DNA of 64,000 nucleotides from Clostridium sp. Its GTDB lineage: Bacteria; Bacillota; Clostridia; Clostridiales; Clostridiaceae. The stretch covers positions 150,439 through 214,438 of the forward strand of contig JARLHR010000204.1 of the NCBI GenBank assembly GCA_031292145.1, in the 5' to 3' direction. A program made the translations under genes and the position numbers. Below, one piece after another: positions 1,364-43,610 of the stretch. Under the pieces are notes generated by a model, which had not been told where the DNA came from, did no database searches, and was given only the letters and a program-made list of their open reading frames with translations. The stretch's first letter is position 1; each line of letters starts with the position of its first letter.

Positions 1364-1861
1364 GTGAGTGTATTTTTACCAGATATAACAGTTCTAACAG
1401 TTTTACTTCTAATCATAGGCTTTGGGCTAGTGTTTTTAGAAATGCATATTCCTGGCTTCGGAATTCCTGGAGTTGCAGGGGCTATATGTTTAATACTAGC
1501 AGTGGTACTAACAGCTCAAAATTTTGCCCAGGCATTAGTTATGGCATTGGCAATTCTAGCTGTATTAGGAGTTATGCTAGCTGTAGTTCTAACGTTTTTT
1601 ACAAAAGGAAAATTATTCAAGCCATTAATACTGCCAGATGTACAAAAGAAAGAACATGGATATATTAGTTCTTCGGATTTAGATTATTTACTAGGAAAAA
1701 AAGGAATTGCAATTACGGATCTAAGGCCATCAGGTTCTGTAGATATAGATGGAGTTAAATTGGATGTAATTTCTGATGGAGAGTATATTTCCGTTGGCTC
1801 TAAAGTCGAGATATTTAAAGTTAGCGGAGTAAAGTTATTAGTAAAAAAAGTTAAAGTATAA
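1364..1861 (+). CDS. nfeD: NfeD family membrane protein (short form)
   Basis: NfeD proteins are membrane partners of flotillin/stomatin-type scaffold proteins. This 165-residue protein has hydrophobic helices (about residues 9-28, 33-52, 55-77) with the GFGxPGxxGxI signature (HIPGFGIPGVAGAI). A C-terminal beta-rich domain follows (about 100-165, GKKGIAITDLRPSGSVDIDG), which matches the OB-fold of the family. It lacks the N-terminal protease domain of long NfeD proteins. The GTG start at 1364 is set by the strong AGGGAGG site 1345-1353. It lies 76 bp upstream of floA, the usual gene pairing, and the two probably share a transcript. Confidence 0.88.
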   Translation: MSVFLPDITVLTVLLLIIGFGLVFLEMHIPGFGIPGVAGAICLILAVVLTAQNFAQALVMALAILAVLGVMLAVVLTFFTKGKLFKPLILPDVQKKEHGYISSSDLDYLLGKKGIAITDLRPSGSVDIDGVKLDVISDGEYISVGSKVEIFKVSGVKLLVKKVKV

Positions 1862-1937
1862 ATTAATATATAAGTTTTAATTTATACCCTACATTCATTG
1901 TCAATTAGAATATATAAATTTAAAGGAGAGATTATTA

Positions 1938-2921
1938 ATGATTAATTTACTGATAGTAGCTATAGCTGTAGTATGTTTAATAGCTGCATTTATAACATTT
2001 GTGCCACTAGGGTTATGGATATCATCTTTAGCAGCTAATGTTCAAGTAAGTATCTTCAATTTAATTGGTATGAGATTAAGAAGAGTTGTTCCTTCTAAAA
2101 TAGTAATTCCACTTATAAAATCAACAAAGGCTGGTATGGGACTTACTGTTAATCAATTAGAAGCTCACTATTTAGCTGGCGGTAATGTAGATAATGTAGT
2201 AAATGCATTGATTGCAGCTCATAGAGCGGACATAGACTTACAATTTGAAAAGGCAGCTGCTATTGATTTAGCAGGTAGAGATGTTTTGGAAGCAGTTAAA
2301 ATGAGTGTTAATCCAAGAGTAATTGAAACACCAAATGTTTCAGCAGTTGCAAAGAATGGCATAGAACTTCTAGTTAAAGCTAGAGTTACAGTTAGAGCTA
2401 ACCTTGAAAGGCTAGTCGGAGGAGCTGGAGAAGCAACTATTTTGGCAAGAGTTGGTGAAGGTATAGTAACTACAGTTGGTTCTTCTGATAGTCATAAGAT
2501 AGTATTAGAAAATCCAGATGCCATTTCAAAAACCGTATTAAATAAAGGATTAGACGCAGGTACAGCCTTCGAGATTCTATCTATTGATATAGCTGATGTA
2601 GATGTAGGAAGAAATATCGGAGCTCAACTTCAAACGCTTCAAGCAGAAGCAGATAAAAATATAGCTCAAGCTAAGGCTGAGGAAAGAAGAGCAATGGCTG
2701 TAGCTAAGGAACAAGAAATGAGAGCTGCTGTTGTTGAATCAGAAGCTGAAGTGCCAAAGGCAATGGCTTATGCACTTAGAGAAGGAAAGCTTGGAATAAT
2801 GGACTATTATGATATGCAAAATGTTATTGCAGATACAAGCATGAGAAGTTCAATTTCTAATGCTGGAAACAAAAATCAATCTGTACCAAGTGGAGATACA
2901 GAAAAAAGAAATAAAAAATAG
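1938..2921 (+). CDS. floA: Flotillin-like protein FloA
   Basis: FloA is an SPFH/band-7 scaffold that assembles functional membrane microdomains at the inner face of the membrane. The protein has 327 residues, close to the family length. It has a hydrophobic N-terminus (residues 2-35), the SPFH-like core, and a C-terminal helical part rich in AKAEERR and [18 protein letters not shown] repeats typical of flotillin coiled coils. Sequence blocks such as [22 protein letters not shown] and [11 protein letters not shown] are characteristic of the FloA family. ATG 1938 follows AAAGGAGAG. It follows nfeD in the same direction. The C-terminal tail is basic and hydrophilic. Identity is secure; a role here in organising the flanking sensor kinase is inference only. 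Confidence 0.94.
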
Positions 2922-8536: not shown

Positions 8537-11524
8537 TTAAATCGTTGATAATGTTGTAGTTCCTGAAAGAATTAATAAATCTTTTATATTTAGAGGTACT
8601 GTTGAAAAAAATGAACCTATAAATGGAATATATAGCATCCCTCCAAACATTGCCACACAAGCAATGGCCGAAATGTTCATATATTTATTTTTACTATCTT
8701 TGTCACTTTTACAATTATATACACTTACTATTTGTGAAAGAACTAAATTAGTAAATGCTAAAGTTCTTGCCTTTTGTAAACTAGCTCCTAACCATAATGA
8801 ACCTTGGAATATTCCAAATGTTGTTAACCCTGTTATTACTCCTGTTCTTACTATTTTTCTCTTAAGTTCCCTATCAATAATTTCATAATCTTTTGATATA
8901 GGTGGATTTTTCATTATATCATTAGATGGCTTTTCGAAAGTAAGTGATGCCCCCAATATTGATTCAGATACAACATCGGTCCATAATATTTGTAAAGAAA
9001 GTAATAATGGTATTCCAATGAACATCGATGAAAATAATATGGCAACTATCTCACCTAAACATCCTGAAAGTAAATACCTCATTGAATTTTTGATATTTAA
9101 ATTTACTGCTCTTCCCTCTTCTATAGCTGCAACTATTGTAGCAAAATTATCATCAGTAAGAATTATATCTGCTGTATCTCTGGCAACATCGCTCCCATTT
9201 TTGCCCATAGCTATTCCTATGTCTGCTTCCTTAATAGCTGGAGCATCATTTACCCCATCCCCTGTCATTGCAACTACATTTCCTGCTCTCTTAAAAGCTT
9301 TCACTATTTTATATTTCTGTTCAGGTGAAGTTCGTGCAAAAACTTGTATTTTATTAATGATAGAGGTTAATTTATCATCGCTTATATCATCAAGTTCTGC
9401 TCCTGATAATACGATACCATCTGTTAAAAGTCCTATCTTTCTTCCTATGGCTGCGGCAGTATTTTTATTGTCTCCTGTTATCATTACAACCTTTATTCCT
9501 GCTCCTTTACACTTTTCTATGCACTCCTTCACTTCCTCTCTAGGTGGATCCTCCATACCTACTAATCCTAAAAAGACAAAGTTATTGTCTATGTTTTTAT
9601 TATCATTTAACACCTTTTTATAAGCAAAAGCTAGAACCCTTAATGCTTTTGTACCCATTTCATCTGCTATATGCTTCAGCCTTTCCTTATCAGTATAATT
9701 AAGTAATCTTTCTTTACCGTTTTCATAAATTCTTGTACATTTATCCAACACTTTACTTAGGGAACCTTTACAATACGCCTCTTTTTCATTTTCATGCTTA
9801 ACTAAAACTGTCATATACCTAGTTGAACTGTCAAAAGGAATTTCCTTTATCCTTTCGTATTTATTAGTTATCTCGTCTATCTGTACTTTATTTTTATAAG
9901 CAGCAACTAACAATGCTCCTTCCGTTGGATCACCGTGAATTTGCCACTTTCCATCACAATTTGAAATATTTGAATTGTTACATATGATACCAGAAGTTAT
10001 TATTTTATCTAATGATTCCTTTTTATTTATCCTTCCAGATTTTAGTACTATATCGCCTTTGGGATTATATCCTGTACCTCTAATTTCATATGTATTATTA
10101 TCAACATAAATCTCTTTTACAGTCATTTCATTCATTGTGAGTGTACCTGTTTTATCACAGCATATCACATTGGCTGATCCTAACGTCTCGACCGCAGGTA
10201 ACTTTCTTACAATTGCATTTTTTGAGGCCATCTTTTGAACTGAAAGCGACATTGCAGCTGTTACTACGGCAGGTAAACTTTCAGGTATTGCTCCTATAGC
10301 AAAGCTGACTCCTAAAATAAACACCTGAACTAATGATGTACCTCTCAAAAGTCCTAGAGCACTTATCCCCATACAAATTCCGAATGCAAGCTTTGTTATC
10401 TTATTTGTAAATTTTTTTATTTTATTCTCAATAGGAGTGGATTCATTTTTAATATTTTGAAGTATATATGCTATTTTACCTATTTCAGTATTTTTTCCTG
10501 TAGCTACAACTACAGCTTTGCCTCTACCTGATAATATATCAGTTCCCATGTAAAGCATATTATATCTATCAGCTAGCTCTGCCTCACACTGGCAAAGAGA
10601 TGGGCTCTTACAAACTGATGTACTTTCTCCAGTAAGAGTTGCCTCTGAAACTTTAAGTTCATAACTTTCTATTATTCTAGCATCTGCTGGTACTTTCTCC
10701 CCTGCTTCGATAATAATTACATCCCCTGGAACAACGTATTTTGCATCTATTATACGCTGCTTTCCGTTCCGTATTACTGTTGCATTTCGTACCATCATTT
10801 CTTTAAGAGAATATAACGACTTTTCTGCTTTATGCTGCTGTAAAGTACTTAGCATAGTCTCAACAGCCGCAATACCTAAAATAGCTACTGCATCAACAAT
10901 TTGCCCTAATACAAAAGATAAAAGTCCTACACCAACTAGCAGTTTAGTAGAAAATTCATTAATATTTTCAAAAAATTTTGCAATCATTGATTTCCTTTTT
11001 GCCTCTGAAATTACATTTAATCCAATTTCTTTTAGTTTTTCATCTACTTGTAATTTAGAAAGCCCTTTTCTAAAATTAGTTTTCAACTCTTTCTCAATAT
11101 CAGATGTCTCAATATAGTGATAATTATTATTACTTTTTTCATTTATAGTTTTATTAAGTACTTCTTTTGATCTTTTAAGTTCCAATGTTTTTTCTATACT
11201 TTCAAAATTAACACTTTTTTTACTAATTGCAGAATTAACATCTTTCATATTTATAGGTAGACTTTTATTCATTTTTTTTGAAACAAACCTATATATTTGT
11301 TGCTTAACACAATTTTCATTTATTATTTCATCATCATATACAACTAATAGACTTCCGGTAAAATCATTTGCCTTACAATACTTAACACCAACTACACTGT
11401 TAACTAGTTTTTCCATTTCCAAAGCTTTTTCTTGACTTCTGTAAATATACTCTATATATATTCTTATTCTTTTATATAGCATTTCATTGCTGATCTCATT
11501 ATAAGCCAACGACATTTTTCTCAT
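8537..11524 (-). CDS. P2-type cation ATPase with N-terminal HMA2-like extension
   Basis: This is a membrane cation pump of the calcium-ATPase-like class, 995 residues. Residues about 15-80 form an HMA2-like domain (GVKYCKANDFTGSLLVVYDD). Then come the Cation_ATPase_N region (about 140-200), actuator domain with intact LTGES, TM4 motif AIPESLPAVV, phosphorylation motif DKTGTLT (D457), nucleotide-binding domain, hinge GDGVNDAPAIKEADIGIAMG, and C-terminal membrane helices. The catalytic residues are complete. Ion-site helices are unusual: TM6 reads LWTDVVSESILGASL where calcium pumps have LWVNLVTDGLPATAL, and TM5 has CLGEIV where SERCA has NVGEVV, so specificity may differ. A HMA2 domain also occurs in the genes at 15756 and 17519, hinting at a shared system. 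Confidence 0.9.
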   Translation of the reverse strand: MRKMSLAYNEISNEMLYKRIRIYIEYIYRSQEKALEMEKLVNSVVGVKYCKANDFTGSLLVVYDDEIINENCVKQQIYRFVSKKMNKSLPINMKDVNSAISKKSVNFESIEKTLELKRSKEVLNKTINEKSNNNYHYIETSDIEKELKTNFRKGLSKLQVDEKLKEIGLNVISEAKRKSMIAKFFENINEFSTKLLVGVGLLSFVLGQIVDAVAILGIAAVETMLSTLQQHKAEKSLYSLKEMMVRNATVIRNGKQRIIDAKYVVPGDVIIIEAGEKVPADARIIESYELKVSEATLTGESTSVCKSPSLCQCEAELADRYNMLYMGTDILSGRGKAVVVATGKNTEIGKIAYILQNIKNESTPIENKIKKFTNKITKLAFGICMGISALGLLRGTSLVQVFILGVSFAIGAIPESLPAVVTAAMSLSVQKMASKNAIVRKLPAVETLGSANVICCDKTGTLTMNEMTVKEIYVDNNTYEIRGTGYNPKGDIVLKSGRINKKESLDKIITSGIICNNSNISNCDGKWQIHGDPTEGALLVAAYKNKVQIDEITNKYERIKEIPFDSSTRYMTVLVKHENEKEAYCKGSLSKVLDKCTRIYENGKERLLNYTDKERLKHIADEMGTKALRVLAFAYKKVLNDNKNIDNNFVFLGLVGMEDPPREEVKECIEKCKGAGIKVVMITGDNKNTAAAIGRKIGLLTDGIVLSGAELDDISDDKLTSIINKIQVFARTSPEQKYKIVKAFKRAGNVVAMTGDGVNDAPAIKEADIGIAMGKNGSDVARDTADIILTDDNFATIVAAIEEGRAVNLNIKNSMRYLLSGCLGEIVAILFSSMFIGIPLLLSLQILWTDVVSESILGASLTFEKPSNDIMKNPPISKDYEIIDRELKRKIVRTGVITGLTTFGIFQGSLWLGASLQKARTLAFTNLVLSQIVSVYNCKSDKDSKNKYMNISAIACVAMFGGMLYIPFIGSFFSTVPLNIKDLLILSGTTTLSTI

Positions 11525-11750
11525 CCTACCATTCCTATCATTAATTTCATGTAAATTGTTAATTAAAACATAAACTTAATTATTTCCCGTATATAAATAT
11601 TTATTCATAAAAATATCTTTCTTTTAATCATTTCCAACATTTACATATAGAAGTTAATATTTATTTAACTTTAATTTTAAGATAACTTTACAATAGTTTT
11701 ATATTATATTTATTGTAGCCGAAATATAAATAAAGGTAGGTGTATAACTT

Positions 11751-12371
11751 ATGAACACTAAAGAAAAATATGTTATGGGTGAACATATTCATTTAGTAGA
11801 AGAGAAATGTATTCAAGTAATAGAGAGAGAACTTGATTCATTTTTTGAAATACGCCTAAATTTTATCTATTTGATTTGTGGGTTATATATAAATGGTTCC
11901 GTAAAACATTCAGATGATATTCTTAAATATCTTAATCTTTTTAATTATGAATTAGAAACTTTTATTGAAACTGTGGTATATAAAGTAAGTAATATATTAA
12001 ATCACAATCTTTCTCAACATACTATATATTTTAATAATTATAATATGAAAAATAATTATATGTATTATGTAGAGAATAATATTAAAAAATTTATAGAAAC
12101 TGAGAAATTGTTAAGTCTTTGTGAGATGGTTTTAGATATATCTTTATCCAAAATGTTAGGAACATGTTGTCAAAGTACAGTACTTAACTATGCTTTTAAT
12201 ACTTTAAATTTACCTGAGAAAATTCTTGATACTAATAGTTTAAAGCATCAAAGATTAGTACATAGCAGTACTGTCTTTGAGCAACTAAAAGGTTATATAC
12301 TAAACCTTAAATGTGATTTGAGAAATGATCTTGTAAAATGGATGTTTCTTCTTGTTAATTCAATCTACTAG
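11751..12371 (+). CDS. Protein of unknown function
   Basis: I do not recognise this 206-residue protein. It appears largely helical, with two moderately hydrophobic stretches (FFEIRLNFIYLICGLYI and WMFLLVNSIY) that may pack rather than span a membrane, and the cysteines of SLCEMV and GTCCQS. There is no signal peptide. ATG 11751 follows AGGTAGGTG. It is divergent from the P2-type ATPase with 226 bp between the starts, so the two could share regulation. Its nearest downstream neighbour is a secreted choline-binding protein. Confidence 0.6.
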   Translation: MNTKEKYVMGEHIHLVEEKCIQVIERELDSFFEIRLNFIYLICGLYINGSVKHSDDILKYLNLFNYELETFIETVVYKVSNILNHNLSQHTIYFNNYNMKNNYMYYVENNIKKFIETEKLLSLCEMVLDISLSKMLGTCCQSTVLNYAFNTLNLPEKILDTNSLKHQRLVHSSTVFEQLKGYILNLKCDLRNDLVKWMFLLVNSIY

Positions 12372-12647
12372 GCTTATGCACTAAATTTTAATATTTAAAC
12401 TTAAAATTCATTAAAACAAGGGCTAATTTCTGGTACTTACAACTCTTATTACTACCTAATGGTATTTTATAGCATTATAATATGAATTTATATACATGAA
12501 AGAACACCTTAAATTGATAAATAAGTTAATTAAGTTAAAAAAGAGGTGAAAATTTGTCGAATGTGTGGTAAAATTATTATTGGACAGACTTATAAAAATA
12601 CATAGATTTTGAAAACGATTTTACACAAAAGAAAAGGGGAAAAACTA

Positions 12648-13589
12648 ATGAAGAAAGCTTTTTTAAGAAGAATTATTGGTACAGTTATTACTGCTACAAC
12701 AATTACTACTTTATTACCATTAGGAGTATCTGCACAATGGCAAGAAAACCATGATAAGAGCTGGAGTTACATTGATGGAAGCTCATTAGCAGGAAATTGG
12801 AAAAATATCTCAGGAACATGGTATTATTTTACTCCAAATGGAGACATGAGGACAGGCTGGGTTTATTATAAAGGTGCTTGGTACTATTTAAATAACTCAG
12901 GTGAAATGCAAACAGGCTGGGCTAATGTTAATAAAGCTTGGTACTATCTGGATAGTACAGGTGTAATGGAAACTGGCTGGATAAAAAATAATGGCAACTG
13001 GTATCACTTAGATGATAATGGAACAATGCAAACAGGTACTATAACTTTAGGTAATAAAACATATTATCTTAATAAATCCGGCTCATTAGACGAAACCTTG
13101 AACAATTCTGATCAAGAAACAACAGATAATGGTTCTCCTACAACTTATGATGCTACAGTGGATGTAGACGGCTTAACTAAATTGCCTCAAAACTATACCA
13201 TAAGTGTACAAGCATCTGCTGAAAATAAGATTCTCGAATTGATGAATCAAAAAAGAATAGAAGCTGGTTTAAATCCATTAACAATGGATAATACTTTACA
13301 AAAGATAGCACGATACAGAAGCGATCATATGATACAATATGATTATTTTGATCACACAACTCCAGATGGAAAGGATTGGACAACCTTGTTGGATTCAGTT
13401 GGCTTCCAATATACTTCAACTGGAGAAAATATAGCATATAATAATTATGATCCAGTTGAATTATTCAATCAATGGTGGAATTCCTCAGAACATAGGGCAA
13501 ATATGATGAATTCATCTTATGCAAAAGTTGGTATAGGAGTAATTTATGGGAATAATAAATATATGGGAACACAAAATTTTTCAAACTAG
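12648..13589 (+). CDS. Secreted CAP/SCP-domain protein with choline-binding repeats
   Basis: This secreted cell-surface protein has a signal peptide (residues 1-31, ending GVSAQ). Next come about five 20-residue cell-wall-binding repeats of the choline-binding type (WYYLNNSGEMQTGWA, WYYLDSTGVMETGWI). Then a CAP/SCP domain occupies about 180-313: ENKILELMNQKRIEAGLNPL, HTTPDGKDW, TGENIAY, and WWNSSEHRANMMN with the conserved His/Glu. ATG 12648 was chosen because AAAAGGGGAAAAACT precedes it; the upstream in-frame ATG at 12609 has no good ribosome site. CAP proteins of this kind are widespread in spore-formers; enzymatic activity is unproven. It stands alone, followed by a long inverted-repeat element. 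Confidence 0.88.
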   Translation: MKKAFLRRIIGTVITATTITTLLPLGVSAQWQENHDKSWSYIDGSSLAGNWKNISGTWYYFTPNGDMRTGWVYYKGAWYYLNNSGEMQTGWANVNKAWYYLDSTGVMETGWIKNNGNWYHLDDNGTMQTGTITLGNKTYYLNKSGSLDETLNNSDQETTDNGSPTTYDATVDVDGLTKLPQNYTISVQASAENKILELMNQKRIEAGLNPLTMDNTLQKIARYRSDHMIQYDYFDHTTPDGKDWTTLLDSVGFQYTSTGENIAYNNYDPVELFNQWWNSSEHRANMMNSSYAKVGIGVIYGNNKYMGTQNFSN

Positions 13590-13591
13590 CA

Positions 13592-13884
13592 GTTCTAGAT
13601 AAATACCGTATAGCCTTGGCTTATGCAATAACCTACCAAAATAACCGGTAGCCTTTTGCTCGGTTGCTAGAGAATATAGCTGCGGATTTCTAACATTAGA
13701 AGTTGTTCCGATTTAACTTGCTCCAAATATAAAATTTGGACAAGTTAAATCGGAACAACTTCCACTGAAGAAATGCCTGCAGCCATATTCTCAATGCAAC
13801 ACTGCGCAAAAGACTACCGGTTATTTCTAGCATTGCATATCTTTCAAAGTATAAATCTCGTTCATGGTTTGTTTATCTACAAAT
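13592..13884. repeat. Long imperfect inverted-repeat element, family 2 (copy B)
   Basis: Arms pair over about 120 nt: AATAACCGGTAG with CTACCGGTTATT, GAGAATATAGCTGC with GCAGCCATATTCTC, and GAAGTTGTTCCGATTTAACTTG with its complement across a CTCCAAATATAAAATTTGG centre. The right end GTTTATCTACAAA resembles the terminus of copy A (GTTTATCTATAAA). It starts just after a stop codon. No reading frame is seen. It fills most of the 334-bp gap between the CAP-protein gene and the DUF445 gene. Confidence 0.75.
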
Positions 13885-13923
13885 TATAACTAGTCTAAAA
13901 TATTATTAACTTCAATGATATGC

Positions 13924-15168
13924 TTATAATATTTTAATTATTCCTAACACTAATCCAATAAAAAATCCACAGATTGCACCATTTATCCTTATCCACTGCA
14001 AATCATCTCCTACCTTATACTCTATCAGCTCTATAAGGCTTTTAGTATCTAACCTTTCAATATTCTCCTTAACAAGTTTACCTATTTTTTCATGATTATT
14101 ATTAATATAATCTGATGCTTGCTCCTGTATGTACCCCTCTAATTTATTTATTAAATCAGCATTAGCTAAAGATTTATCTATTAAATTTTCTAATAATGGT
14201 ATTATGTTTGCTTCTATATAATTATCATCGTTAACATAACTTAATATTAAGCTTTGCATTTCATTTAAAGTTTTCAATATAAAATCATTTAATTTAACAT
14301 TACTAGTTAAATTATTTTTATAGTCATCTATTTTTTGTACAATATATGTATTATCACTAATATTGCTTATGTTGTTTCGTATGAATTTAACAATAATTAC
14401 TCTATTTGAATTGTCAACCTTTTTTAAATCTTTTAGTATTAAGATAATTAAATCTTGAATTAAGCTTGCTGTTCTATCCTTTCCAAGGCTCTCTATAATT
14501 GCTCTCACTACATATTGGATTAGTTTATTTACTTTAAGCTTCTCCATAGAATCAAATACTACATTTCCAATTTCTTTTTTTATTTCTTCCCTTTTTATTA
14601 CTTCTTCAAGTTTATTAATTATGCTGTCTACAATTTTTTCCTCACAATTATACTTCAAACATGCGTTAATCAATACTTCAAGAAAATTTTTAGTATCAAA
14701 TGTATTTAAATAACATCCTATTAATTCATATAAATATGAAGAAATTTTAGTTATAGGTGCATTACTTATGCCACTCCTTATAATATAAATTATTCTAGAT
14801 TTAACTTCCTTAGAATATATTTTTCTTTTACATATTTTTAAAGTTCTTTCCACAATATTGAATTGCTGTATCTTATTCAGAATACTAGATTTATTGAGTA
14901 AGTTATTTTCTACTATTGAAACCAAAGCCATAGTTATTCTCGTACGGTTATTAGGTAACAATGCTGTATGTGGAATTTTAATCCCAAGCGGATAACGAAA
15001 TAGTGCCGTTACTGCAAACCAATCTGCAAGACCTCCTACTAGACCTGCTTCAAACCCACTTTGTAATATCATTATTATAGTTACATTGTCTGAAAATAAG
15101 GTACCCATGAAACCTATAATCATGATAATTAATGATATTAAAGCTTTTTGATTAGTTTTTATTTTCAT
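13924..15168 (-). CDS. DUF445 family membrane protein
   Basis: This is a 414-residue member of the DUF445 family. It has an N-terminal membrane segment (about 9-35), the family signature GLVGGLADWFAVTALFRYPLGIKIPHTALLP at about 42-72, a long helical middle, and a C-terminal hydrophobic segment (WIRINGAICGFFIGLVLGIIKIL). The C-terminal segment makes an anti-parallel membrane hairpin likely. Function is unknown; members are thought to sit at membranes with a coiled-coil stalk. It is divergent from the helical-protein gene at 15331 with 162 bp between starts, so co-regulation with the ATPase cluster is possible but unproven. Confidence 0.88.
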   Translation of the reverse strand: MKIKTNQKALISLIIMIIGFMGTLFSDNVTIIMILQSGFEAGLVGGLADWFAVTALFRYPLGIKIPHTALLPNNRTRITMALVSIVENNLLNKSSILNKIQQFNIVERTLKICKRKIYSKEVKSRIIYIIRSGISNAPITKISSYLYELIGCYLNTFDTKNFLEVLINACLKYNCEEKIVDSIINKLEEVIKREEIKKEIGNVVFDSMEKLKVNKLIQYVVRAIIESLGKDRTASLIQDLIILILKDLKKVDNSNRVIIVKFIRNNISNISDNTYIVQKIDDYKNNLTSNVKLNDFILKTLNEMQSLILSYVNDDNYIEANIIPLLENLIDKSLANADLINKLEGYIQEQASDYINNNHEKIGKLVKENIERLDTKSLIELIEYKVGDDLQWIRINGAICGFFIGLVLGIIKIL

Positions 15169-15330
15169 GTTATAACCTCCTCTAACGTCAGTATGTAAAA
15201 ATGTTTTAATATTTATACTATTGACTTGAAAATTACATGTAAAATTAACTTAAATTTTACGTATAATTTTTTTTAATATGTATATAATAACGATTAAAAT
15301 CTTAAATAAATACCTAGGAGGCATAATTAT

Positions 15331-15744
15331 ATGGAAAACCCAGAACAAATTAATCAACAATTTACTGAACTTAAAGAAAAATATGAATCTTTAATTCAAA
15401 GGTTAGATAATATTGAAAAAGAAAGTACTAATAGGGAAAATGATTTTCAAGCTATTAACAATAACATAAAAGAACTTATGGCAAAAATTGATTCAATGGT
15501 TGAATATAAAGAAACAAGCAAACTATTCAATAGCGGTAGAAAAAGTAGTTCTTCATTTATGAATATGATCACAACACCTATGAGGAAAATTACTGTGGGT
15601 ACTATGCGTACCATCTTTTCAATGGCTGACTATGCATCAGAAAGGGTTTCTTGTGCGCGTGAAGGTATAGAAGATATCGTTGCAGAAGCTCAATATGAAA
15701 ACAAGAAAAGAAGATCTACTATGATGCCTAGTGCGCAAAGTTAA
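15331..15744 (+). CDS. Coiled-coil protein with PacL-like C-terminal segment
   Basis: This 137-residue protein has an N-terminal coiled coil (about 5-55, many E/K/Q heptads). Its C-terminal segment reads PMRKITVGTMRTIFSMADY, then ASERVSCAREGIEDIVAEAQ. The pattern PxRxxTV...AExxR...DIVAEA resembles, from memory, the soluble region of actinobacterial DUF1490/PacL proteins that scaffold metal-exporting P-type ATPases. Unlike PacL it has no clear transmembrane helix. ATG 15331 follows CTAGGAGG. The ATPase-like gene at 15756 starts 11 bp after its stop, and the operon runs on to a real P-type ATPase, the same context as PacL genes. The similarity is a hypothesis; the gene itself is secure. Confidence 0.72.
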   Translation: MENPEQINQQFTELKEKYESLIQRLDNIEKESTNRENDFQAINNNIKELMAKIDSMVEYKETSKLFNSGRKSSSSFMNMITTPMRKITVGTMRTIFSMADYASERVSCAREGIEDIVAEAQYENKKRRSTMMPSAQS

Positions 15745-15755
15745 AATATTGTAAT

Positions 15756-16916
15756 ATGAATATTAAAAAATTATCATCAATTCCAGGAAGAATACGCTTA
15801 TATATAGAAGGACTTAAAGGAAATTATTATATAGCTATACATATTGAAAATATGCTAACAAATTTTTCTCATATACAGTCAATTAATATCAACACTAAAA
15901 CTGGTAATATACAATTAATTTATAATTCATATTATATTAATGAAGATATGATATTCCGCATCATATCTTCATCTTCTATTAAGGTAAATAATTTAGCTAA
16001 ATTAACTTACTGTAGAAATAAAGCAAGTAATTGTTCAAAAGAACTTCTCCAAAATACAAAATCTTTATCAAGAGGACTTTTAGCTTTATCACTATCTGTA
16101 GCTTCAATATTATTTTTTACTTCCTCTCCCACACATGCTATTTGTTCTCTTATTTTAGGATTTCCTGGAGCAATATATCTTACTTCCTATTTTTCATTAA
16201 AGTATATATTACATAAAGCTTACTTAAATAATGTTTATATTAAAGATATTCATTCTATTAGATACATTAAAAATATGAAAGGAATTTCACTGCATCCAAG
16301 TATAGTATTTAATAATAACTTTGATAAATTCAAGTCTATAAACTATTTTAGACTTGAAAGCCTTATATATACTAATAAAATAGATGATCCTATTAATATA
16401 GAAGTTAGAAAATTAATAAAAAATTTGAGAACTATAGGACTTAATAACATAACTATTATTTCAAACTATAGAAATAACAATTTAATATTGTATGCAAATA
16501 AAAGCCTTGGGCTTTATGATCACAAAGAAAATCAGCAACATAAAATAACAGTTATAAATTATAAAGATTTGAGCGAAATCGATAAAATTGATAGAAAAAT
16601 AATCTTGAGCATATCCCCATCCAAAAAATTTTATGAAGACAATATCACCATAGCTTGTAGTAAATTATGCCAGATTCCATGGCTAATTGAAGTATGCATG
16701 AATAGTGAAGAACATTTAGTAAGAGCTCAATCTATTGCTGTGAGTATTAATGTATTTGGAATTTTTCTTGCTTTGATTAAATTTATAAGTTTAAGCCAAA
16801 CCATTCTACTTTATTTAATGAATACATTAGGAACTTTATTCTATATTAAATACAATATAATACATACTATAAAAAATAATAAGGAGTTACCATTATGGAA
16901 ACCAAAGGAACTTTAG
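15756..16916 (+). CDS. HMA2-domain membrane protein: catalytically empty P-type ATPase relative
   Basis: The 386-residue protein starts with an HMA2-like domain (IPGRIRLYIEGLKG, then TKTGNIQLIYN; residues 5-75). Two hydrophobic helices follow (about 105-150). The middle soluble part resembles only the second half of a P domain (EVRKLIKNLRTIGLNNITIISNY). Two C-terminal helices (SINVFGIFLALIKF, LLYLMNTLGTLFYIKYNI) match the last pair of P1B ATPases. DKTGT, TGE, the nucleotide-binding domain and GDGxND are all absent, so it cannot be a pump on its own. It could be a subunit or regulator of the ATPase at 17519. It has no good ribosome site and may be translationally coupled to the gene ending at 15744. 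Confidence 0.75.
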   Translation: MNIKKLSSIPGRIRLYIEGLKGNYYIAIHIENMLTNFSHIQSININTKTGNIQLIYNSYYINEDMIFRIISSSSIKVNNLAKLTYCRNKASNCSKELLQNTKSLSRGLLALSLSVASILFFTSSPTHAICSLILGFPGAIYLTSYFSLKYILHKAYLNNVYIKDIHSIRYIKNMKGISLHPSIVFNNNFDKFKSINYFRLESLIYTNKIDDPINIEVRKLIKNLRTIGLNNITIISNYRNNNLILYANKSLGLYDHKENQQHKITVINYKDLSEIDKIDRKIILSISPSKKFYEDNITIACSKLCQIPWLIEVCMNSEEHLVRAQSIAVSINVFGIFLALIKFISLSQTILLYLMNTLGTLFYIKYNIIHTIKNNKELPLWKPKEL

Positions 16917-17143
16917 AGATACTTGAAGAAGAATTATCAAATATAGAAAAAAAAGCTAATGAAATTATAACTTTTAGTTTAAAATCAATAAAATCAGATC
17001 CTTCACTTGAGAAGGAAATACTAAAAATGTTTATGACTGCATCCACAAGAATAACCAATTATTTCATTAAAGAAACTGAAAGCACTAATACCGAATATGT
17101 AGGAAAAAATGTAATGAAATATGCAATGTTTAAAAAATTTTAA
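16895..17143 (+). CDS. Small helical protein in the ATPase cluster
   Basis: This 82-residue protein is of unknown family. It is predicted as mostly amphipathic helix (TLEILEEELSNIEKKANEIITFSLKSIKSD) with no membrane segment. Its ATG overlaps the end of the preceding gene by 22 bp and has its own ribosome site (AAGGAG at 16881-16886), a typical operon arrangement. It is probably cotranscribed with the two HMA2 genes around it. A scaffold or adaptor role is inferred from context only. Confidence 0.72.
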   Translation: METKGTLEILEEELSNIEKKANEIITFSLKSIKSDPSLEKEILKMFMTASTRITNYFIKETESTNTEYVGKNVMKYAMFKKF

Positions 17144-17228
17144 TTAGTAAATAACTCTACACATGTATAAATTGCATTTTCTCGGGCATAATGAAGAAAT
17201 GTATTTTTATATTAATGGAGGTATTTAA

Positions 17229-17477
17229 ATGAAATCAAATAAAAAACGATTGCTTTGTGGCTTAACTATAGGAACCATAGGCTTGGTATTATATAATTCA
17301 ATTAAATATCATGAAGAAAAGCTTAAATATATAGAAAGAGATACATCCAATGATCCTATTAATACTGATAAGTCGCCAGAAAGTTCTAGAAAAGATAATG
17401 AGCTAATAGATTTTTTTAATGATCTAAAAAAACAAGCAAGTTTACTTGAAGATAGATTAAATGAACTTAAGAAGTAA
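17229..17477 (+). CDS. Small single-pass membrane protein in the ATPase cluster
   Basis: The 82-residue protein has one N-terminal hydrophobic helix (about 8-25, LLCGLTIGTIGLVLYNSI), a polar linker, and a charged C-terminal helix (NELIDFFNDLKKQASLLEDRLNELKK). The architecture of one membrane helix followed by a soluble coiled coil is that of small accessory proteins found beside P-type ATPases in other phyla (PacL, DUF5132-like). No sequence identity to them is claimed. ATG 17229 follows GGAGG. It lies 42 bp upstream of the ATPase gene at 17519 and is probably in the same operon. Confidence 0.75.
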   Translation: MKSNKKRLLCGLTIGTIGLVLYNSIKYHEEKLKYIERDTSNDPINTDKSPESSRKDNELIDFFNDLKKQASLLEDRLNELKK

Positions 17478-17518
17478 TAATTTACTCCATTGATTAATAA
17501 TAAAGAGGTGATTTATTT

Positions 17519-19654
17519 TTGGATTGTTTAAGTGCTTTACCAGGAAGAGTGCGATTTAGATCATTAGATATATGCTATAATAGCAATCTTTCAGAATATG
17601 TAGAAAAATATATATATAGTTTATATGGTGTTAAATCTACTAGACTTACAGAACGCACTGGTTCAATATTAGTTGTCTATGATATACAAAAAACAAATAT
17701 ACATACTCTAAAAGAAAATATAGAAAATGCTCTTTCTACTACTATAATTAAAGATGATACTAGATTTAATAATTTTCAAGAATACTTTAAAGTAGTAAGT
17801 AATAAAAAAATAGCAAGAAGAAAACTTTTATTTTGGAGCTTATTTTATCTATTGCTTAAAATCAAAAATTCCACTTATGGTAAGTTTCCTTTAAGCAGAA
17901 ATTTAACTGTGCTTAAAGTCGCTTCTGTAGTAACTATTATAGGTGGATACCCATTGATTAAAAAGTTGTATAAAAAGTTTACTAAAACTTTACCCACAAA
18001 TGAAGATATTTTACTAGAACTTACTGCCTTATCTTTTACTATCATAAGAGAAAGTTCTAAAGGTGTCTTAGTTCTTATTTTAAAGTCTTTAAATGATTAC
18101 ATTAAATACTCTGCCGAAATCGAAAGTAGAAAAGCTTTACTGGATTCCTATGATCTAAATTATAAAATGGCCTGGACTGATTCACTTAATGGTGATAAAA
18201 TTCTAGTTTCAACTGATGCCTTAAAAATTGGGGATTATGTTTATAATTATACTGGTGAAATAGTACCTGTTGAGGGAATTATAGAGGAGGGTAGTGCTAC
18301 TACAAATACTTTATATTATTCTGGTCAGCCAGTAATTTCTCATATAGGTAAAGGCTCTAAGATTTATGAAGGCACTGCAATAATCTCTGGTAATTTAAAA
18401 ATTAAGATTACTAAGTTATCAGATTCAGGAGAAAAAAATGATATCGCACCCGAAAAACTTTATATACATAATAAAACTAAGAACTTCCAACATAAAATCA
18501 CCCATTTTGCAATATGGGCTGCAGGCTTAAGTTACTTATTTACACGTAATATACTAAATGCATTTTCTGTATTCTTAGTTTTAAGCCCTAAAGCTACTTC
18601 AGTAGCTTTTAATTCTGGAATTAAAAATTACATATGGTTATTAAATAAAAATAATATTTATTTAAGAAATCCAAATACATTTGAGAATATATTAAATGTA
18701 AATAAAGTTATTTTTGATAAGACTGGAACACTAACCTATGGAAAAATGAATATTATATCTATATCTTCACTTGATGAAGAATATTCAGAAAAGGAAATAC
18801 TTGAAATATGTGCTGCATGTGAAGCAGAACATTTCCACCCTATTTCAGTAACTTTACAAGATACTTGCGACGATATTGATTTTAACCAAGTTAATAATTC
18901 TGTACTTATACCATCACAAGGAATAAAAGCTACTCATAATAACAAAGAAGTTCTAATTGGTAATATGGACTTAATGAAAAATAATCATATAAATCTACTA
19001 ACTGGTGAAAAAACATATTTAAACTATCAAAAAGAATCATTAATCCCTATCTTTGTAGCTATAAACAAAAATCTTGTAGGTATATTAGTTCTCGACGATA
19101 TTTTAAGAGAAGATTCTAGTGATCTTATAAACGGCTTAAGATATAATGGAATAAACGATGTATCTATACTAAGTGGTGACTCTTACCCTAAAGCACAAAA
19201 AATAGGTTCTAAGCTCGGAATAACTGAGATATATGCTGACATGAATTACTTAGAAAAAGCTAATATAGTTGAAGCTGCAAGTACTAACAATACTGTCATA
19301 ATGGTTGGTGATGGAATTAATGATACATTAGCTATGAAAGCAGCAGACATAAGTATAAGTTTTGCTAATAGGTCTTGCGATATGATAAAGCTTCATTCTG
19401 ACTGTATCATATACGATGATAATTTGACTAGACTTTCAGATCTAATATCTATATCAAAAAAATCTTATACTGCTATTACTAGAACTATTCTTTTCTCAAA
19501 TATATATAATATTACCCTTGGTTTTATTGCATTTACAGGAGGCATGGATATATTTGTAGCAAAATCCTTAAATACATTAAACTCACTATTAGTATTACTT
19601 CTTAACCAAAGGATTCATTATATAAGACCAAGTAAGACATATGAAAAAAAATAA
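17519..19654 (+). CDS. Divergent P1B-like heavy-metal ATPase with altered SGQ and SPK motifs
   Basis: The 711-residue protein has the layout of a metal-translocating P-type ATPase. An N-terminal HMA2 domain (LPGRVRFRSLDICYN, SILVVYD) and about three helices (105-120, 135-160, 165-195) precede the actuator domain. Then come a helix pair, DKTGTLT (D400), the HP motif in EAEHFHPISV, hinge GDGIND, and two final helices. Three key places differ: TGE of the actuator domain is S268-G269-Q270, the membrane CPx motif is S356-P357-K358, and the hinge continues TLAMKAAD instead of SPALAAAD. The TGE glutamate drives dephosphorylation, so turnover may be impaired. TTG start at 17519 is supported by AAAGAGGTG at 17502-17510. 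The last codons lie in a family-1 repeat end. Confidence 0.87.
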   Translation: MDCLSALPGRVRFRSLDICYNSNLSEYVEKYIYSLYGVKSTRLTERTGSILVVYDIQKTNIHTLKENIENALSTTIIKDDTRFNNFQEYFKVVSNKKIARRKLLFWSLFYLLLKIKNSTYGKFPLSRNLTVLKVASVVTIIGGYPLIKKLYKKFTKTLPTNEDILLELTALSFTIIRESSKGVLVLILKSLNDYIKYSAEIESRKALLDSYDLNYKMAWTDSLNGDKILVSTDALKIGDYVYNYTGEIVPVEGIIEEGSATTNTLYYSGQPVISHIGKGSKIYEGTAIISGNLKIKITKLSDSGEKNDIAPEKLYIHNKTKNFQHKITHFAIWAAGLSYLFTRNILNAFSVFLVLSPKATSVAFNSGIKNYIWLLNKNNIYLRNPNTFENILNVNKVIFDKTGTLTYGKMNIISISSLDEEYSEKEILEICAACEAEHFHPISVTLQDTCDDIDFNQVNNSVLIPSQGIKATHNNKEVLIGNMDLMKNNHINLLTGEKTYLNYQKESLIPIFVAINKNLVGILVLDDILREDSSDLINGLRYNGINDVSILSGDSYPKAQKIGSKLGITEIYADMNYLEKANIVEAASTNNTVIMVGDGINDTLAMKAADISISFANRSCDMIKLHSDCIIYDDNLTRLSDLISISKKSYTAITRTILFSNIYNITLGFIAFTGGMDIFVAKSLNTLNSLLVLLLNQRIHYIRPSKTYEKK

Positions 19655-19780
19655 TAGACCAAAATACTGGTCTATTTTGTGCTATGCTTCATCACCACAA
19701 CCCTTACATAGCTTGCTATGCACGGGTTGTGGTCCTTCGCCTAGCTCAAAATATCCTAAGAATATTTGACTTGTTATCTT
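19636..19780. repeat. Family-1 related element at the end of the ATPase gene
   Basis: ACATATGAAAAAAAATAATAGACC matches the left terminus of the copy at 49.3 kb (CACATGAAAAAAAATAATAGACC). The far end reads TTTGACTTGTTATCTTC, close to the other terminal type. Inside are two hairpins: AATAGACC-AAAATACT-GGTCTATT and CCACAACCC...GGGTTGTGG. The terminus contributes the last codons and the TAA stop of the ATPase gene. It probably terminates transcription. Confidence 0.65.
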
Positions 19781-19791: not shown

Positions 19792-21579
19792 CTAATCAAT
19801 AACATTTATTAAATAGCAGCTTCCAGAAATATGTTTAACTTCCTTTTTTATTGATGCTACAGCTAAACCTACTTCTTCTGGATTTAAAAAGTTATTGAAT
19901 TCACCATACATACCAGCAATCGAAAGAGAAGTAAGTGGAAATATACCTTTCCTTCCATCCCTACTTGTTGCTTCAATATACTTGTTTCTTTTATCTTTCT
20001 CATTAAAAAAGTCTAAAATCGACCTATCAAATTCTTCTATTATTTCTTCACATAATTTTTCACACTCTTCAATTGAATTTTCTATTACACCAACAAAATC
20101 ATCCCCGCCTATATGTCCAACAAATCCATTGTAAGGGAAAAGTGCTTTTATTTTAGAATGGATTAATTGGGCTGTATACTTAAGAATCCTGTCTCCATTT
20201 TCAAACCCATAAGTATCATTGTAAATTTTAAAATTGTCTAAGTCTAAATAAAGAATGCAGCATGTGCGTTTAGTTTTAAGCATATTATTTATAGTATTTT
20301 GTATAACTGTATTACCTGGAAGTTCCGTAAGTGGATTAAGCTGCCTTGCATAATTACATTCAAGCATAGTAGTATAATTAAGCAAAGATCTTATAGTAAC
20401 AATACCACAATACTTACTATTATTAGTTATGATAATATAGTCATATATATTTTCTGTTTTTCTAGACATAGCCATTCTTGAAACTTCAACGACTGGCGTA
20501 TGATAATCTACTATTAAAGGATTTCTGTCCATTACTAATGAAACAGGACGTTTTGTAAAAACAGCTACGCCATATTGTGTAGCAAGAGCTGAATCTAATG
20601 CATGTTTCATAACAAAACCCACCGGAATACCATTATTTACGATGCAGGCTCCTGTAATATCGTTAGAATCAAAATATTCCTTAATTTCCCCACATTGAGT
20701 TGTAGGATTAAAGGACTTATCGCGTCTTACAATTTCACCTATATTGTTAGAGTTGCAATTATAATAAGTATTCTCTTTAAATTTGTTACATTTTATAATT
20801 ATATTTTTAACATTGTTTGGTATATCTAAAAATGTTCCTGCTGGTCGGCTAATGAAGAAGCCTTGTCCAGCATATACCCCTAGATTAATTAATGTTTTCA
20901 GCTCTTCTTCCGTTTCTATCCCTTCAGCAATAAGTTTCATATTGTTTGCTTCTGAAAGCTTAACGAAACATTCCAATAAAGATTGTTTAAAAGAATCCTC
21001 ATTTATATTTTTAATTAAATCCATATCAATTTTTATATAATGAGGTTTTGTTTCATTAAGCATCTTAAGTCCTGAGTAACCTGCCCCAGTATCATCAATT
21101 GCAATTTTATATCCCTGATCTACATAATTGCTGAGAGCTTTTTTAAAACTTTTATAATCTTCTACACAAGTTTTTTCAGTAATTTCGAATATTATACAGT
21201 CAGGCGACATGTTATTCTCTGCAAGAAATTCCTTAGTAAATCCTTTCTTAAACTTTTCATCCTTAAAAATATGCGGATCCACATTTATAAAAAGATATTT
21301 ATTCTTTTCAATATTAGACGCTCTTTCAATAGCTTTTATTCTGCATAATTGCTCTAATTCCCAAGTTTTATTATGGATTTGAGCAGAATTAAATAATTTG
21401 TCAGGATTTTGCAATGGTGAACCTACAGGGCCTCTGCTCAAAGCTTCGTAGCCTATAATTGTCCCGTCTAAAAGTGAAACGATAGGTTGATAAACTGTAG
21501 AAATATTTTTATTATTAAGTATACTCTCCAACTCTTCCACCTCATTATATTTTGAATCATAAGCAAGTTCATTTAACAT
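19792..21579 (-). CDS. Cyclic-di-GMP protein: EAL - CBS pair - GGDEF
   Basis: This is a cytoplasmic cyclic-di-GMP turnover protein of 595 residues. Residues about 20-260 are an EAL phosphodiesterase domain with key motifs intact (YEALSRG, INVDP, FEITE, DDTGAGYSGL, IKID, AEGIE, GQGFFISRP). Residues about 280-410 contain two CBS-like repeats. Residues about 415-575 are a GGDEF domain (LYLDLDNFKIYND). Its signature is GGDDF and no RxxD inhibitory site precedes it, so it may be a weak cyclase or a GTP-binding regulatory domain. The order EAL first, GGDEF last is the less usual one. No membrane helix is seen. It is monocistronic and upstream DNA is unusually long and structured. Confidence 0.9.
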   Translation of the reverse strand: MLNELAYDSKYNEVEELESILNNKNISTVYQPIVSLLDGTIIGYEALSRGPVGSPLQNPDKLFNSAQIHNKTWELEQLCRIKAIERASNIEKNKYLFINVDPHIFKDEKFKKGFTKEFLAENNMSPDCIIFEITEKTCVEDYKSFKKALSNYVDQGYKIAIDDTGAGYSGLKMLNETKPHYIKIDMDLIKNINEDSFKQSLLECFVKLSEANNMKLIAEGIETEEELKTLINLGVYAGQGFFISRPAGTFLDIPNNVKNIIIKCNKFKENTYYNCNSNNIGEIVRRDKSFNPTTQCGEIKEYFDSNDITGACIVNNGIPVGFVMKHALDSALATQYGVAVFTKRPVSLVMDRNPLIVDYHTPVVEVSRMAMSRKTENIYDYIIITNNSKYCGIVTIRSLLNYTTMLECNYARQLNPLTELPGNTVIQNTINNMLKTKRTCCILYLDLDNFKIYNDTYGFENGDRILKYTAQLIHSKIKALFPYNGFVGHIGGDDFVGVIENSIEECEKLCEEIIEEFDRSILDFFNEKDKRNKYIEATSRDGRKGIFPLTSLSIAGMYGEFNNFLNPEEVGLAVASIKKEVKHISGSCYLINVID

Positions 21580-38756: not shown

Positions 38757-39521
38757 TCATATAAATTGTATTTTAGGTGTAAATCCACAATATCCTATTA
38801 CATCACACCTTTTTTTCATATCCTCCCATACTTCTTTATCCTTTATAGATTCTATTGCTGTAGGATATAAAATATAATTTTCTTTGAATATGTGATCTCT
38901 TAAGTTAAATATAATATATTTTGCTGTATCATCAACTTTTTCTTTAAATTCATTAAATTCTAATGTAGAAACTTCTTCAGCTGTTTTTATTAAAAACTTT
39001 TTCTTAGCTCTTAAATCATCATGCTCCATTCTCATAATTCTAGTTGGACCAGTGATGCTTCTATCTTCCATCTCAGCAAATAACACCTGTTCTTCTCTTT
39101 GGTGATGACTTTCTGCATCTAATATATTATTTACAACAGTTTTTAATGCTTCAAATTCTTCTAAGCTGCTATCATAACTTTCTAATTTTTGAATTTTAGA
39201 ATTAATCTCTTCAAGTTCTGTTAAAAACTCAAGGATTTTGTCATGTTCAGCAATAAGTGTATGCACAACATGTCCTGGCTCAATTTGAGTTTTAATTTTA
39301 TCAAGTTCACTTTTTAAAACTTCCATGTGAATATCACAAAGGTGCCTTAAGTCATGTGGATTCATTCCTTTCTCTATTAAATTTTGTTCTGCTATTGAAA
39401 GCTCAATGGGATTTATATTTGAAACAACATCTAACGCTTCTTTTCTTAAATTCTCTGTAATACCTATCTCATTTAATTTTTGTAAAACTTCAGTTAATTT
39501 TTCTATCTTTTTATTATCCAT
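38757..39521 (-). CDS. DUF438 / hemerythrin-like domain protein
   Basis: The 254-residue protein has an N-terminal DUF438 domain (about 1-75; LSIAEQNLIEKGMNPHDLRHLCDIH) and a hemerythrin-like domain (about 85-235). The latter has His/Glu residues in LIAEHDKILEFL, ESHHQREEQVLF, RMEHDDLRAKKKF and FNLRDHIFKENYILYP, consistent with a di-iron site. The C-terminal PAS domain found in many DUF438 proteins is absent. It lies 16 bp downstream of the RIC gene and shares its strand. A role in O2/NO sensing or iron-cluster repair is inferred from family and context. Confidence 0.87.
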   Translation of the reverse strand: MDNKKIEKLTEVLQKLNEIGITENLRKEALDVVSNINPIELSIAEQNLIEKGMNPHDLRHLCDIHMEVLKSELDKIKTQIEPGHVVHTLIAEHDKILEFLTELEEINSKIQKLESYDSSLEEFEALKTVVNNILDAESHHQREEQVLFAEMEDRSITGPTRIMRMEHDDLRAKKKFLIKTAEEVSTLEFNEFKEKVDDTAKYIIFNLRDHIFKENYILYPTAIESIKDKEVWEDMKKRCDVIGYCGFTPKIQFI

Positions 39522-39537
39522 TTTTAATTCTCCTTTA

Positions 39538-40251: not shown

Positions 40252-40372
40252 TTGATTATTCCTCCTAGATTGTATATTTAAAATAAGCTTTTATTCATTT
40301 CATTATTTATTTTGTAAATTTGTTTTTTCGTTAGCTTCTGACTTTATTATATCTATATTGATTTTAATAATA

Positions 40373-40388
40373 TGTGATTCAAATCAAA
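40373..40388. promoter_or_regulatory. Crp/Fnr-type operator upstream of ric
   Basis: TGTGATTCAAATCAAA, or TTGAT-N4-ATCAC read on the minus strand, fits the FNR/CRP half-site pattern. It lies between the Crp/Fnr gene and ric. Two related palindromes are at 42555 and 42913. Confidence 0.65.
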
Positions 40389-40451
40389 TATAAGACACAA
40401 TCAAAAAAATAAAGTTCACTATTACTCATAATGTAATAATGAACTCTTAAT

Positions 40452-41165: not shown

Positions 41166-41240
41166 ATTATTTTCCCCCTTTGCCAACTATTTAAAAGATA
41201 AATATATTACAATTGCCTTATTTTAAGACATATATTTAAA

Positions 41241-42002: not shown

Positions 42003-42068
42003 AAAACTATCTATCCTTCCTTACTTCCTTACTTATTTACTAACTTCTAAAACTTAAGATTCAAAACA

Positions 42069-42098
42069 AATCCTAGCTACTTATTGATAGCTAGGATT
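42069..42098 (-). terminator. Hairpin terminator or attenuator upstream of the nitroreductase gene
   Basis: AATCCTAGCTA and TAGCTAGGATT pair; TTGTTTTG follows on the minus strand. It could end transcripts of the DUF2249 gene, or stop transcripts from the promoter at 42178 before the nitroreductase gene. The same stem appears at 45266. Confidence 0.72.
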
Positions 42099-43593: not shown

Positions 43594-43610
43594 GATAAGG
43601 AGGACATTAT

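What the first reader, a model, noticed from the sequence alone, without database searches (positions are those of the whole stretch)
8537..19654. Possible undescribed HMA2 transport system: two ATPases, an empty ATPase relative and small helical partners
Three proteins in 11 kb (8537, 15756, 17519) share an N-terminal HMA2-like domain. Between and beside them are a coiled-coil protein with a PacL-like C-terminus (15331), a helical protein (16895), a one-helix membrane protein with coiled coil (17229) and a DUF445 membrane protein (13924). Genes 15331-17519 are tightly packed on one strand. Actinobacterial PacL proteins scaffold P-type ATPases, so a clostridial multi-subunit ATPase assembly is a reasonable hypothesis.
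Basis: partly seen in the sequence, partly recalled or inferred. Interest (0 to 1): 0.78.

Follow-up and report, generated by a model that had tools for sequence, protein, structure and literature searches.

The report
Conserved pump cluster with disabled pump
Some Clostridium-like bacteria keep a gene cluster in which one apparently working ion pump sits beside pump look-alikes that have lost parts of the engine and beside small scaffold-like proteins, which suggests that disabled pumps are being used as building blocks of a membrane machine.

Summary
Proteins 8537, 15756 and 17519 share a homologous HMA_2 N-terminus and are the only three HMA_2 proteins over cut-off in the genome. The order [8537-type pump, opposite strand] > (11751) > 15331 > (15756) > 16895 > (17229) > 17519 recurs across genera. 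In the family, the 17519-type ATPase, the HMA_2-bearing P2A pump and 15331 share the same 16 of 206 genomes.

New here: 8537 keeps its catalytic motifs, but 18 of 18 17519-type ATPases have Gln for the actuator glutamate that drives dephosphorylation, against Glu in 27 of 27 other P1B ATPases compared, under strong purifying selection. 15756 is a pseudo-ATPase; a relative in another lineage lost the motifs separately. 15331 and, more weakly, 17229 resemble FezA/DUF6110, the PacL-like partner of FezB ferrosome ATPases. 17519 is not FezB.

Best reading: a PacL/FezA-like membrane platform with one active P2A pump and non-cycling P1B subunits docked through HMA_2 domains. Assembly and substrate are inferred. 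DUF445 is a genus-level neighbour only.

The parts
8537..11524 (-). HMA_2-bearing P2A-type ATPase (995 aa), catalytic motifs intact; presumed active pump
11751..12371 (+). 206-aa helical protein without Pfam, NCBIfam or PHROG hit; homologue next to the cluster in 11 of 18 loci
15331..15744 (+). coiled-coil protein with FezA/PacL-like C-terminal core; in 18 of 18 loci
15756..16916 (+). HMA_2 pseudo-ATPase (no actuator domain, no DKTGT, no GDGIND); in 12 of 18 loci, one of them a fragment
16895..17143 (+). 82-aa helical protein found so far only with this system; in 17 of 18 loci
17229..17477 (+). one-helix membrane protein with coiled coil; family matches FezA-like proteins weakly (86.5%)
17519..19654 (+). 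HMA_2 P1B-type ATPase (711 aa, TTG start) with DKTGT (D400) but Gln (Q270) for the actuator Glu; probable non-cycling subunit
19653..19676 (.). terminator-like hairpin at the end of the operon, between two convergent genes (listed for the - strand)
13924..15168 (-). DUF445 membrane protein; neighbour in the window's genus only, probably not part of the system

Best explanation
The cluster encodes a membrane platform of the PacL/FezA-plus-P-ATPase kind. The pumping subunit is the HMA_2-P2A ATPase 8537. 17519 is a P1B ATPase that can probably still be phosphorylated but does not cycle normally, and 15756 is a gutted P1B relative; both are kept as non-transporting structural or regulatory subunits. 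The shared HMA_2 domains are docking handles. The FezA/PacL-like proteins 15331 (coiled coil plus core) and 17229 (membrane helix plus coil) hold the HMA_2 proteins together at the membrane. Shown: homologies, motifs, co-occurrence, gene order, purifying selection. Inferred: physical assembly, pumping by 8537, lack of turnover by 17519, and transport of a divalent cation through an ion site that differs from ordinary Ca2+ pumps.
For: Same 16 of 206 family genomes for 17519-type ATPase, 15331 and ~1000-aa HMA_2-P2A pump. Fixed order in the loci read. 18 of 18 Gln versus 27 of 27 Glu in the actuator loop, and Glu-to-Gln there blocks dephosphorylation of ATP8A2 (PMC4937031, passage). dN/dS of 17519 0.16-0.19 versus 0.09-0.22 for the pump, 8 pairs each. 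19 of 19 P2A partners keep TGE, DKTGT and GDG[VI]ND. The P1B member is further gutted in L060 (N domain) and, separately, in G182. 15331 core matches FezA/DUF6110. PacL1 binds the N-terminal region of the P-ATPase CtpC and the two form large complexes (PMC9374683, passages).
Against: No interaction, structure, expression or transport datum for these proteins. DKTGT and, with one exception (L048, GEG), GDGxND are kept in 17519-type ATPases, which a purely structural protein would not need. 15756 is absent from 6 of 18 loci and 17229-like proteins from 3. The 15331 and 17229 families do not match each other directly (5.6%). The 15331-FezA link is profile-level, and the FezA set was picked by position and motif. 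Metal-binding C-terminal motif of PacL is missing.
Confidence: 0.5

Rival explanations
1. 17519 is an active but slow or regulated pump that does without the canonical actuator glutamate; the cluster then encodes two working pumps of different specificity with shared helpers.
For: DKTGT in 18 of 18 and GDGxND in 17 of 18 are kept; the HP-type nucleotide motif is kept in 13 of 18; strong purifying selection.
Against: Gln at the dephosphorylating position in 18 of 18; usual P1B metal motifs of TM4 (CPC, or SC of P1B6) and TM6 (HN) lost in 18 of 18; N domain largely lost in L060; separate loss of catalytic motifs in G182.
Confidence: 0.2
2. The genes are neighbours with separate functions (a P2A exporter on one strand, a P1B remnant operon on the other) kept together by co-inheritance.
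For: Pump and operon are on opposite strands, with up to 4.5 kb between them in some loci; other genes such as DUF445 and an EAL protein also sit nearby in several loci.
Against: Same 16 of 206 genomes, across several genera and also in two other families (G467, G297); shared HMA_2 domain; in L047-L050 the two are divergent with only 165-522 bp between.
Confidence: 0.1
3. 15756 and 17519 are decaying remnants of an old pump.
For: 15756 evolves faster (dN/dS 0.24-0.47), is absent from 6 of 18 loci and is broken up in L044.
Against: 17519 is as constrained as the pump; its Gln is fixed across genera and families; gene order is kept.
Confidence: 0.07
4. It is an ordinary ferrosome (fezAB) cluster.
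For: HMA_2 P1B-type ATPase with a FezA-like partner.
Against: 17519-type lacks the HN and [FY][SC]C motifs present in 24 of 24 FezB- and DUF6110-type ATPases compared, has Gln for Glu and forms its own 100/100 clade apart from the C. difficile-type ATPases.
Confidence: 0.04

Closest known systems
PacL-CtpC metal efflux platform / effluxosome of Mycobacterium (PMC9374683, PMC13043812; passages seen)
   Same: Small PacL-like protein encoded beside a P-ATPase; scaffold role proposed; PacL1 binds the N-terminal region of its P-ATPase and several pumps share foci.
   Different: Here the scaffold core is on a coiled-coil protein without the membrane helix (15331) and a separate membrane-helix protein (17229); no C-terminal His/Asp metal motif; one partner is a P2A pump and the P1B partners look disabled.
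FezA-FezB ferrosome pair of Clostridioides difficile (review PMC12574912, passages; primary papers not held)
   Same: HMA_2-like P1B ATPase next to a FezA/DUF6110 protein, homologous to 15331's core by profile.
   Different: FezB-type keeps TGE, HN and SC motifs and forms another clade; no P2A pump, 16895 or 15756 relative was identified beside the pair in the loci read.
DUF6110-P1B6 clusters of Firmicutes (noted in PMC9374683; L076-L081 here)
   Same: Several HMA_2 proteins, a P1B6 ATPase and a DUF6110-like protein in one cluster.
   Different: The extra HMA_2 proteins are ~130-290 aa and not recognisably ATPase-derived; the ATPase is canonical at TGE and HN.
P2A Ca2+-ATPases (Listeria LMCA1, PMR1/SERCA types)
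   Same: 8537 core domains and catalytic motifs.
   Different: N-terminal HMA_2 domain; M6 Glu for Asp in 19 of 19 cluster members; PESLP in 17 of 19; under NCBI equivalog cut-offs.
KdpFABC (listing and abstracts seen)
   Same: Precedent for a multi-subunit P-type ATPase.
   Different: Its other subunits are not P-type ATPase relatives (recalled).

Membership tests
HMA_2 (PF19991) | profile match over the curated cut-off | tested here: met
   8537 33.5, 15756 39.1 bits against 30; 17519 28.0 but 30.5
P2A Ca2+-ATPase (for 8537) | P2A domain set with TGE, DKTGT, GDGxND | tested here: met
P2A Ca2+-ATPase (for 8537) | equivalog score for PMR1- or SERCA-type Ca2+ pump | tested here: not met
   659.8 of 798.3 and 603.5 of 703.4 bits
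P2A Ca2+-ATPase (for 8537) | Asp in M6 ion site | tested here: not met
   Glu in 19 of 19 cluster pumps; Asp in 12 of 12 other pumps compared
P1B ATPase (for 17519) | P1B-type profile match | tested here: inconclusive
   TIGR01525 E 4.6e-86 but 289.9 bits under the cut-off of 346.25
P1B6 / FezB (for 17519) | HN in TM6 (PMC9374683) and SC in TM4 (seen here) | tested here: not met
   0 of 18, against 24 of 24 FezB- and DUF6110-type
P1B6 / FezB (for 17519) | groups with C. difficile-type FezB in a tree | tested here: not met
   separate 100/100 clades
cycling P-type ATPase (for 17519) | actuator-loop Glu | tested here: not met
   Gln in 18 of 18
FezA/DUF6110/PacL (for 15331) | homologous cytoplasmic core | tested here: met
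   94.6%, E 7.3e-8, controls at most 0.4%
FezA/DUF6110/PacL (for 15331) | N-terminal membrane helix | tested here: not met
   coiled coil instead in the window; a helix is present in the L061 and G182 homologues
FezA/DUF6110/PacL (for 15331) | Pfam DUF6110 or DUF1490 hit | tested here: not met
   not among the hits of the window protein (all 19 shown); DUF1490 E 3.8e-4 only for the L061 homologue
FezA/DUF6110/PacL (for 17229) | profile match over membrane helix and core | tested here: inconclusive
   86.5%, E 4.6e-6, reversed control 0.4%; members picked partly by position
Ferrosome system | fez-dependent iron granules | not testable with these tools
   needs electron microscopy

The most novel reading that the evidence does not exclude
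A ferrosome-like membrane compartment or platform whose original P1B pump was turned into a non-cycling scaffold while an HMA_2-tagged P2A pump took over the pumping, so that it loads a different cation: a pump swap inside a bacterial organelle-type system, with a phosphorylation-locked ATPase as structural or ATP-sensing subunit.
Probability: 0.12. Interest if true: 0.88.

Novelty: new variant of a known kind. Interest (0 to 1): 0.62.

Why it matters
A clade of P-type ATPases with a conserved change at the dephosphorylating residue, retained beside an active pump of another class and sharing its extra domain, would be a natural case of P-type pseudo-pumps used as subunits. It would extend the PacL/FezA platform idea to P2A pumps and to mixed pump classes, and it offers a compact system in which the role of the HMA_2 domain and of PacL-like proteins can be tested.

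Tried and rejected
Ferrosome identity: tested against the C. difficile pair (L083) and rejected as membership. L058 (G098) passed the ATPase threshold, but it is 26% identical, keeps TGE, CPC and HN and has no partner genes in the 19 kb read; it is not counted. L062 (G367) is a P1B ATPase with CPC and HN whose best frame starts after the HMA_2 region; not counted. Plasmids: no 15331 match and one 24% ATPase match. Rfam: nothing at gathering score; two sub-threshold miRNA-family hits near 13.7 kb fall in a palindromic repeat. Promoters: ATGAATAAATATTT lies before the P2A gene in 5 of 5 genus loci; no Fur-box-like site stood out by eye; not pursued; sigma-70-like matches 85 against 79.7 in shuffles. 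A class-wide search with the L061 ATPase mostly returned other P1B ATPases (169 of 393 genomes) and was not used for counts.

ORFs came from a simple longest-ORF script that missed a 16895-type gene in L052 (found). 17229-like proteins other than L043-L046 were chosen by position and size. Rows dropped before the tree: L044, L062, L086, L089, L127; it is drawn with a midpoint root. FezA-like ORFs were picked by position and a motif resembling the core: 18 of 24 loci gave one; the six left out show a comparable ORF by eye. The P2A control used 12 of the 17 non-cluster matches.

Full report
What is there. The window (64 kb of a 6.34 Mb, 282-contig genome) carries at 8537-19654 a P-type ATPase on the - strand, a spacer with 11751, a CAP-domain choline-binding-repeat protein (12609) and DUF445 (13924), and then five + strand genes: 15331 (137 aa), 15756 (386 aa), 16895 (82 aa), 17229 (82 aa) and 17519 (711 aa, TTG start). 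A terminator-like hairpin lies at 19653-19676. That the host is a Clostridium is inferred: it belongs to the same class as G452 (listing of class members), whose ATPase is 93% identical to one of Clostridioides difficile.

The shared domain. Pfam finds HMA_2 on 8537, 15756 and 17519. Family profiles of the three N-termini match each other at 97.5-98.9% (E 5.1e-12 to 2.7e-17); reversed controls 0.1-2.6%. In the whole genome these three are the only HMA_2 proteins over cut-off; two weaker hits lie elsewhere.

The neighbourhood. The ATPase at E <= 1e-60 is in 17 of 206 family genomes; one of them, G098, is a distant canonical P1B ATPase without the partners. 15331 at E <= 1e-3 is in 17 of 206: the other 16 plus G182. 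HMA_2 frames of 990-1029 aa, the P2A type, at E <= 1e-5 are in 16 of 206, the same 16. In 18 genomes with a 17519-type ATPase (window, L043-L057, L060, and L059 with L082 on two contigs) and in L061 the pump is on the opposite strand from the operon; the order is 15331, (15756), 16895, (17229-like), 17519, with exceptions: L054 has 16895 and two extra 15331 homologues after the ATPase, and L061 has 16895 after it. Over the 18: P2A pump 18, 15331 18, 16895 17 (L052 recovered; none in L055), 17229-like 15, 15756 12 (a fragment in L044), 11751 11. In L047-L050 pump and 15331 are divergent and 165-522 bp apart. In a class sample of 393 genomes the 17519 type is in 6 and the L061 type in 1; the 16895 profile finds six of these seven (all but G127) at E <= 5.2e-28, plus one hit at 5e-4 inside a 749-aa frame that I take for chance. 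The system is rare and patchy, but the block stays together.

The pump that should work. 8537's best solved relative is the Listeria Ca2+-ATPase LMCA1 (E 6.3e-165); it falls under NCBI's equivalog cut-offs for PMR1- and SERCA-type Ca2+ pumps. All 19 cluster pumps keep TGE, DKTGT and GDG[VI]ND. In all 19 the M6 acidic residue is Glu, whereas 12 of 12 other P2A-like pumps compared, from five of the same genomes, have Asp; 17 of 19 read PESLP in M4. I infer an active pump with an altered ion site; the cation is unknown.

The pump that probably does not cycle. In the actuator loop 18 of 18 17519-type ATPases have Gln in place of the catalytic Glu; 27 of 27 other P1B ATPases in the same alignment have Glu (L058, L061, L062, L075-L081 and 17 named FezB-type). 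DKTGT is in all 45; the GDGxND motif reads GEG in two (L048, L058). The P1B6 signatures, HN in TM6 (PMC9374683) and [FY][SC]C in TM4 (seen here), are in 24 of 24 FezB- and DUF6110-type ATPases and in none of the 18. Glu-to-Gln at this position blocks dephosphorylation of ATP8A2 (PMC4937031, passage). The 17519 family is not drifting: dN/dS 0.16-0.19 over 8 pairs, against 0.09-0.22 for the P2A pump over the same 8 pairs. L060's version (615 aa) lacks most of the N domain.

The empty relatives. 15756 residues 100-386 match 17519 (98.0%, E 1.8e-13), but actuator domain, DKTGT and GDGIND are missing. It evolves faster (dN/dS 0.24-0.47) and is absent from six loci. In G182, a relative of the L061 lineage (whose ATPase still has TGE and DKTGT), the P1B member (534 aa) has no match to L061 residues 77-336, which include the actuator loop, and reads ENIDV for DKTGT and CDAISN for GDGIND, while its PacL-like, 16895-like and membrane-coil neighbours are open frames in the L061 order; the 3197-bp contig ends before a pump could be seen, and this genome is 81% complete. 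P1B members of this system thus seem to have been disabled more than once.

The small proteins. A 49-column stretch at the C-terminus of the 15331 family matches a profile of 18 FezA-like proteins encoded just upstream of FezB-type ATPases (94.6%, E 7.3e-8; reversed and five column-shuffled controls at most 0.4%; against the 16895 and 11751 families 1.0 and 0.3%). The C. difficile member of that set is DUF6110 (E 1.5e-23; 13 of the 18 rows of A6 hit DUF6110). In L061 and G182 the 15331 homologue is a short protein with a membrane-helix-like start before the same core, an apparent intermediate. The 17229-like family matches FezA more weakly (86.5%, E 4.6e-6; reversed 0.4%), and the two families do not match each other directly (5.6%); L082's 17229-like protein still shows the core by eye. 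The FezA set was chosen by position and a motif resembling the core, a bias that the six omitted loci, which show a comparable ORF, only partly offset.

Known systems. PacL proteins (DUF1490) are published as scaffolds for P-ATPases in Mycobacterium: PacL1 binds the N-terminal region of CtpC and both sit in large complexes; related DUF6110 proteins are noted beside P1B6 ATPases, mainly in Firmicutes (PMC9374683, passages; PMC13043812, passages). C. difficile FezA and FezB are needed for ferrosomes (review PMC12574912, passages; primary papers not held). The C. difficile pair found here (L083: DUF6110 protein, then HMA_2-like P1B6-type ATPase) fits that, and the close relative G452 has a single HMA_2 match at E <= 1e-4; that L083 is fezAB is my inference. 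The tree puts the 17 17519-type rows in a 100/100 clade with a long stem, joined to L061 (100/99), apart from the FezB-type and DUF6110-type clades. The window cluster is related in plan to FezA/PacL systems but is not one of them.

Prior description. Searches of the open-licence PMC library listed no paper whose title, abstract or passages seen describe this cluster; papers outside that library were not seen.

Mechanism and confidence. A membrane platform: HMA_2 domains as docking handles, FezA/PacL-like proteins as scaffold, 8537 as pump, 17519 and 15756 as non-cycling subunits (0.5). The main rival is a slow but active 17519 (0.2). The boldest reading is a ferrosome-like compartment with a swapped pump (0.12). 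No experiment on any of these proteins was available.

Noticed in passing
window 13595-13850: Imperfect palindromic repeat (arms of 27 and 26 nt) dispersed in the genome: 60 matches, some of them the same place on both strands, with 40 of 120 candidates scored. Looks like a MITE- or BIME-like element.
   Followed up: partly
window 19792-21579; L043, L044, L051, L057: An EAL-CBS-GGDEF protein lies near the cluster in five loci, on different sides of it.
   Followed up: no
L053 11916-13961, L054 3962-5980: dCache chemoreceptors lie beside the cluster in these loci.
   Followed up: no
window 11751-12371: Fast-evolving helical family (dN/dS 0.24-0.50) without known domain, next to the cluster in 11 of 18 loci.
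   Followed up: partly
window 1364-2921: NfeD and flotillin-like FloA pair about 5.6 kb from the P2A gene; not checked in other loci.
   Followed up: no
window 38757-47140: Prismane/hybrid-cluster protein, two hemerythrin-domain proteins, a Crp-type regulator and a nitrite/sulfite-reductase-type protein close together; looks like a nitrosative-stress cluster.
   Followed up: no
L048 7739-8884; L060 12698-14230: An IS605-type OrfB gene lies between the 15331 and 16895 homologues in L048, and a DDE transposase beside the P2A pump in L060.
   Followed up: no
G125 C2 1186715-1187929; G126 C1 1456070-1457191: By frame lengths these genomes also hold an HMA_2 set of the L076-L081 kind elsewhere, so the two systems can coexist.
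   Followed up: no
L054 6189-8561: Extra 15331 and 16895 homologues follow the ATPase in G099, one with a 347-aa coiled-coil extension.
   Followed up: no
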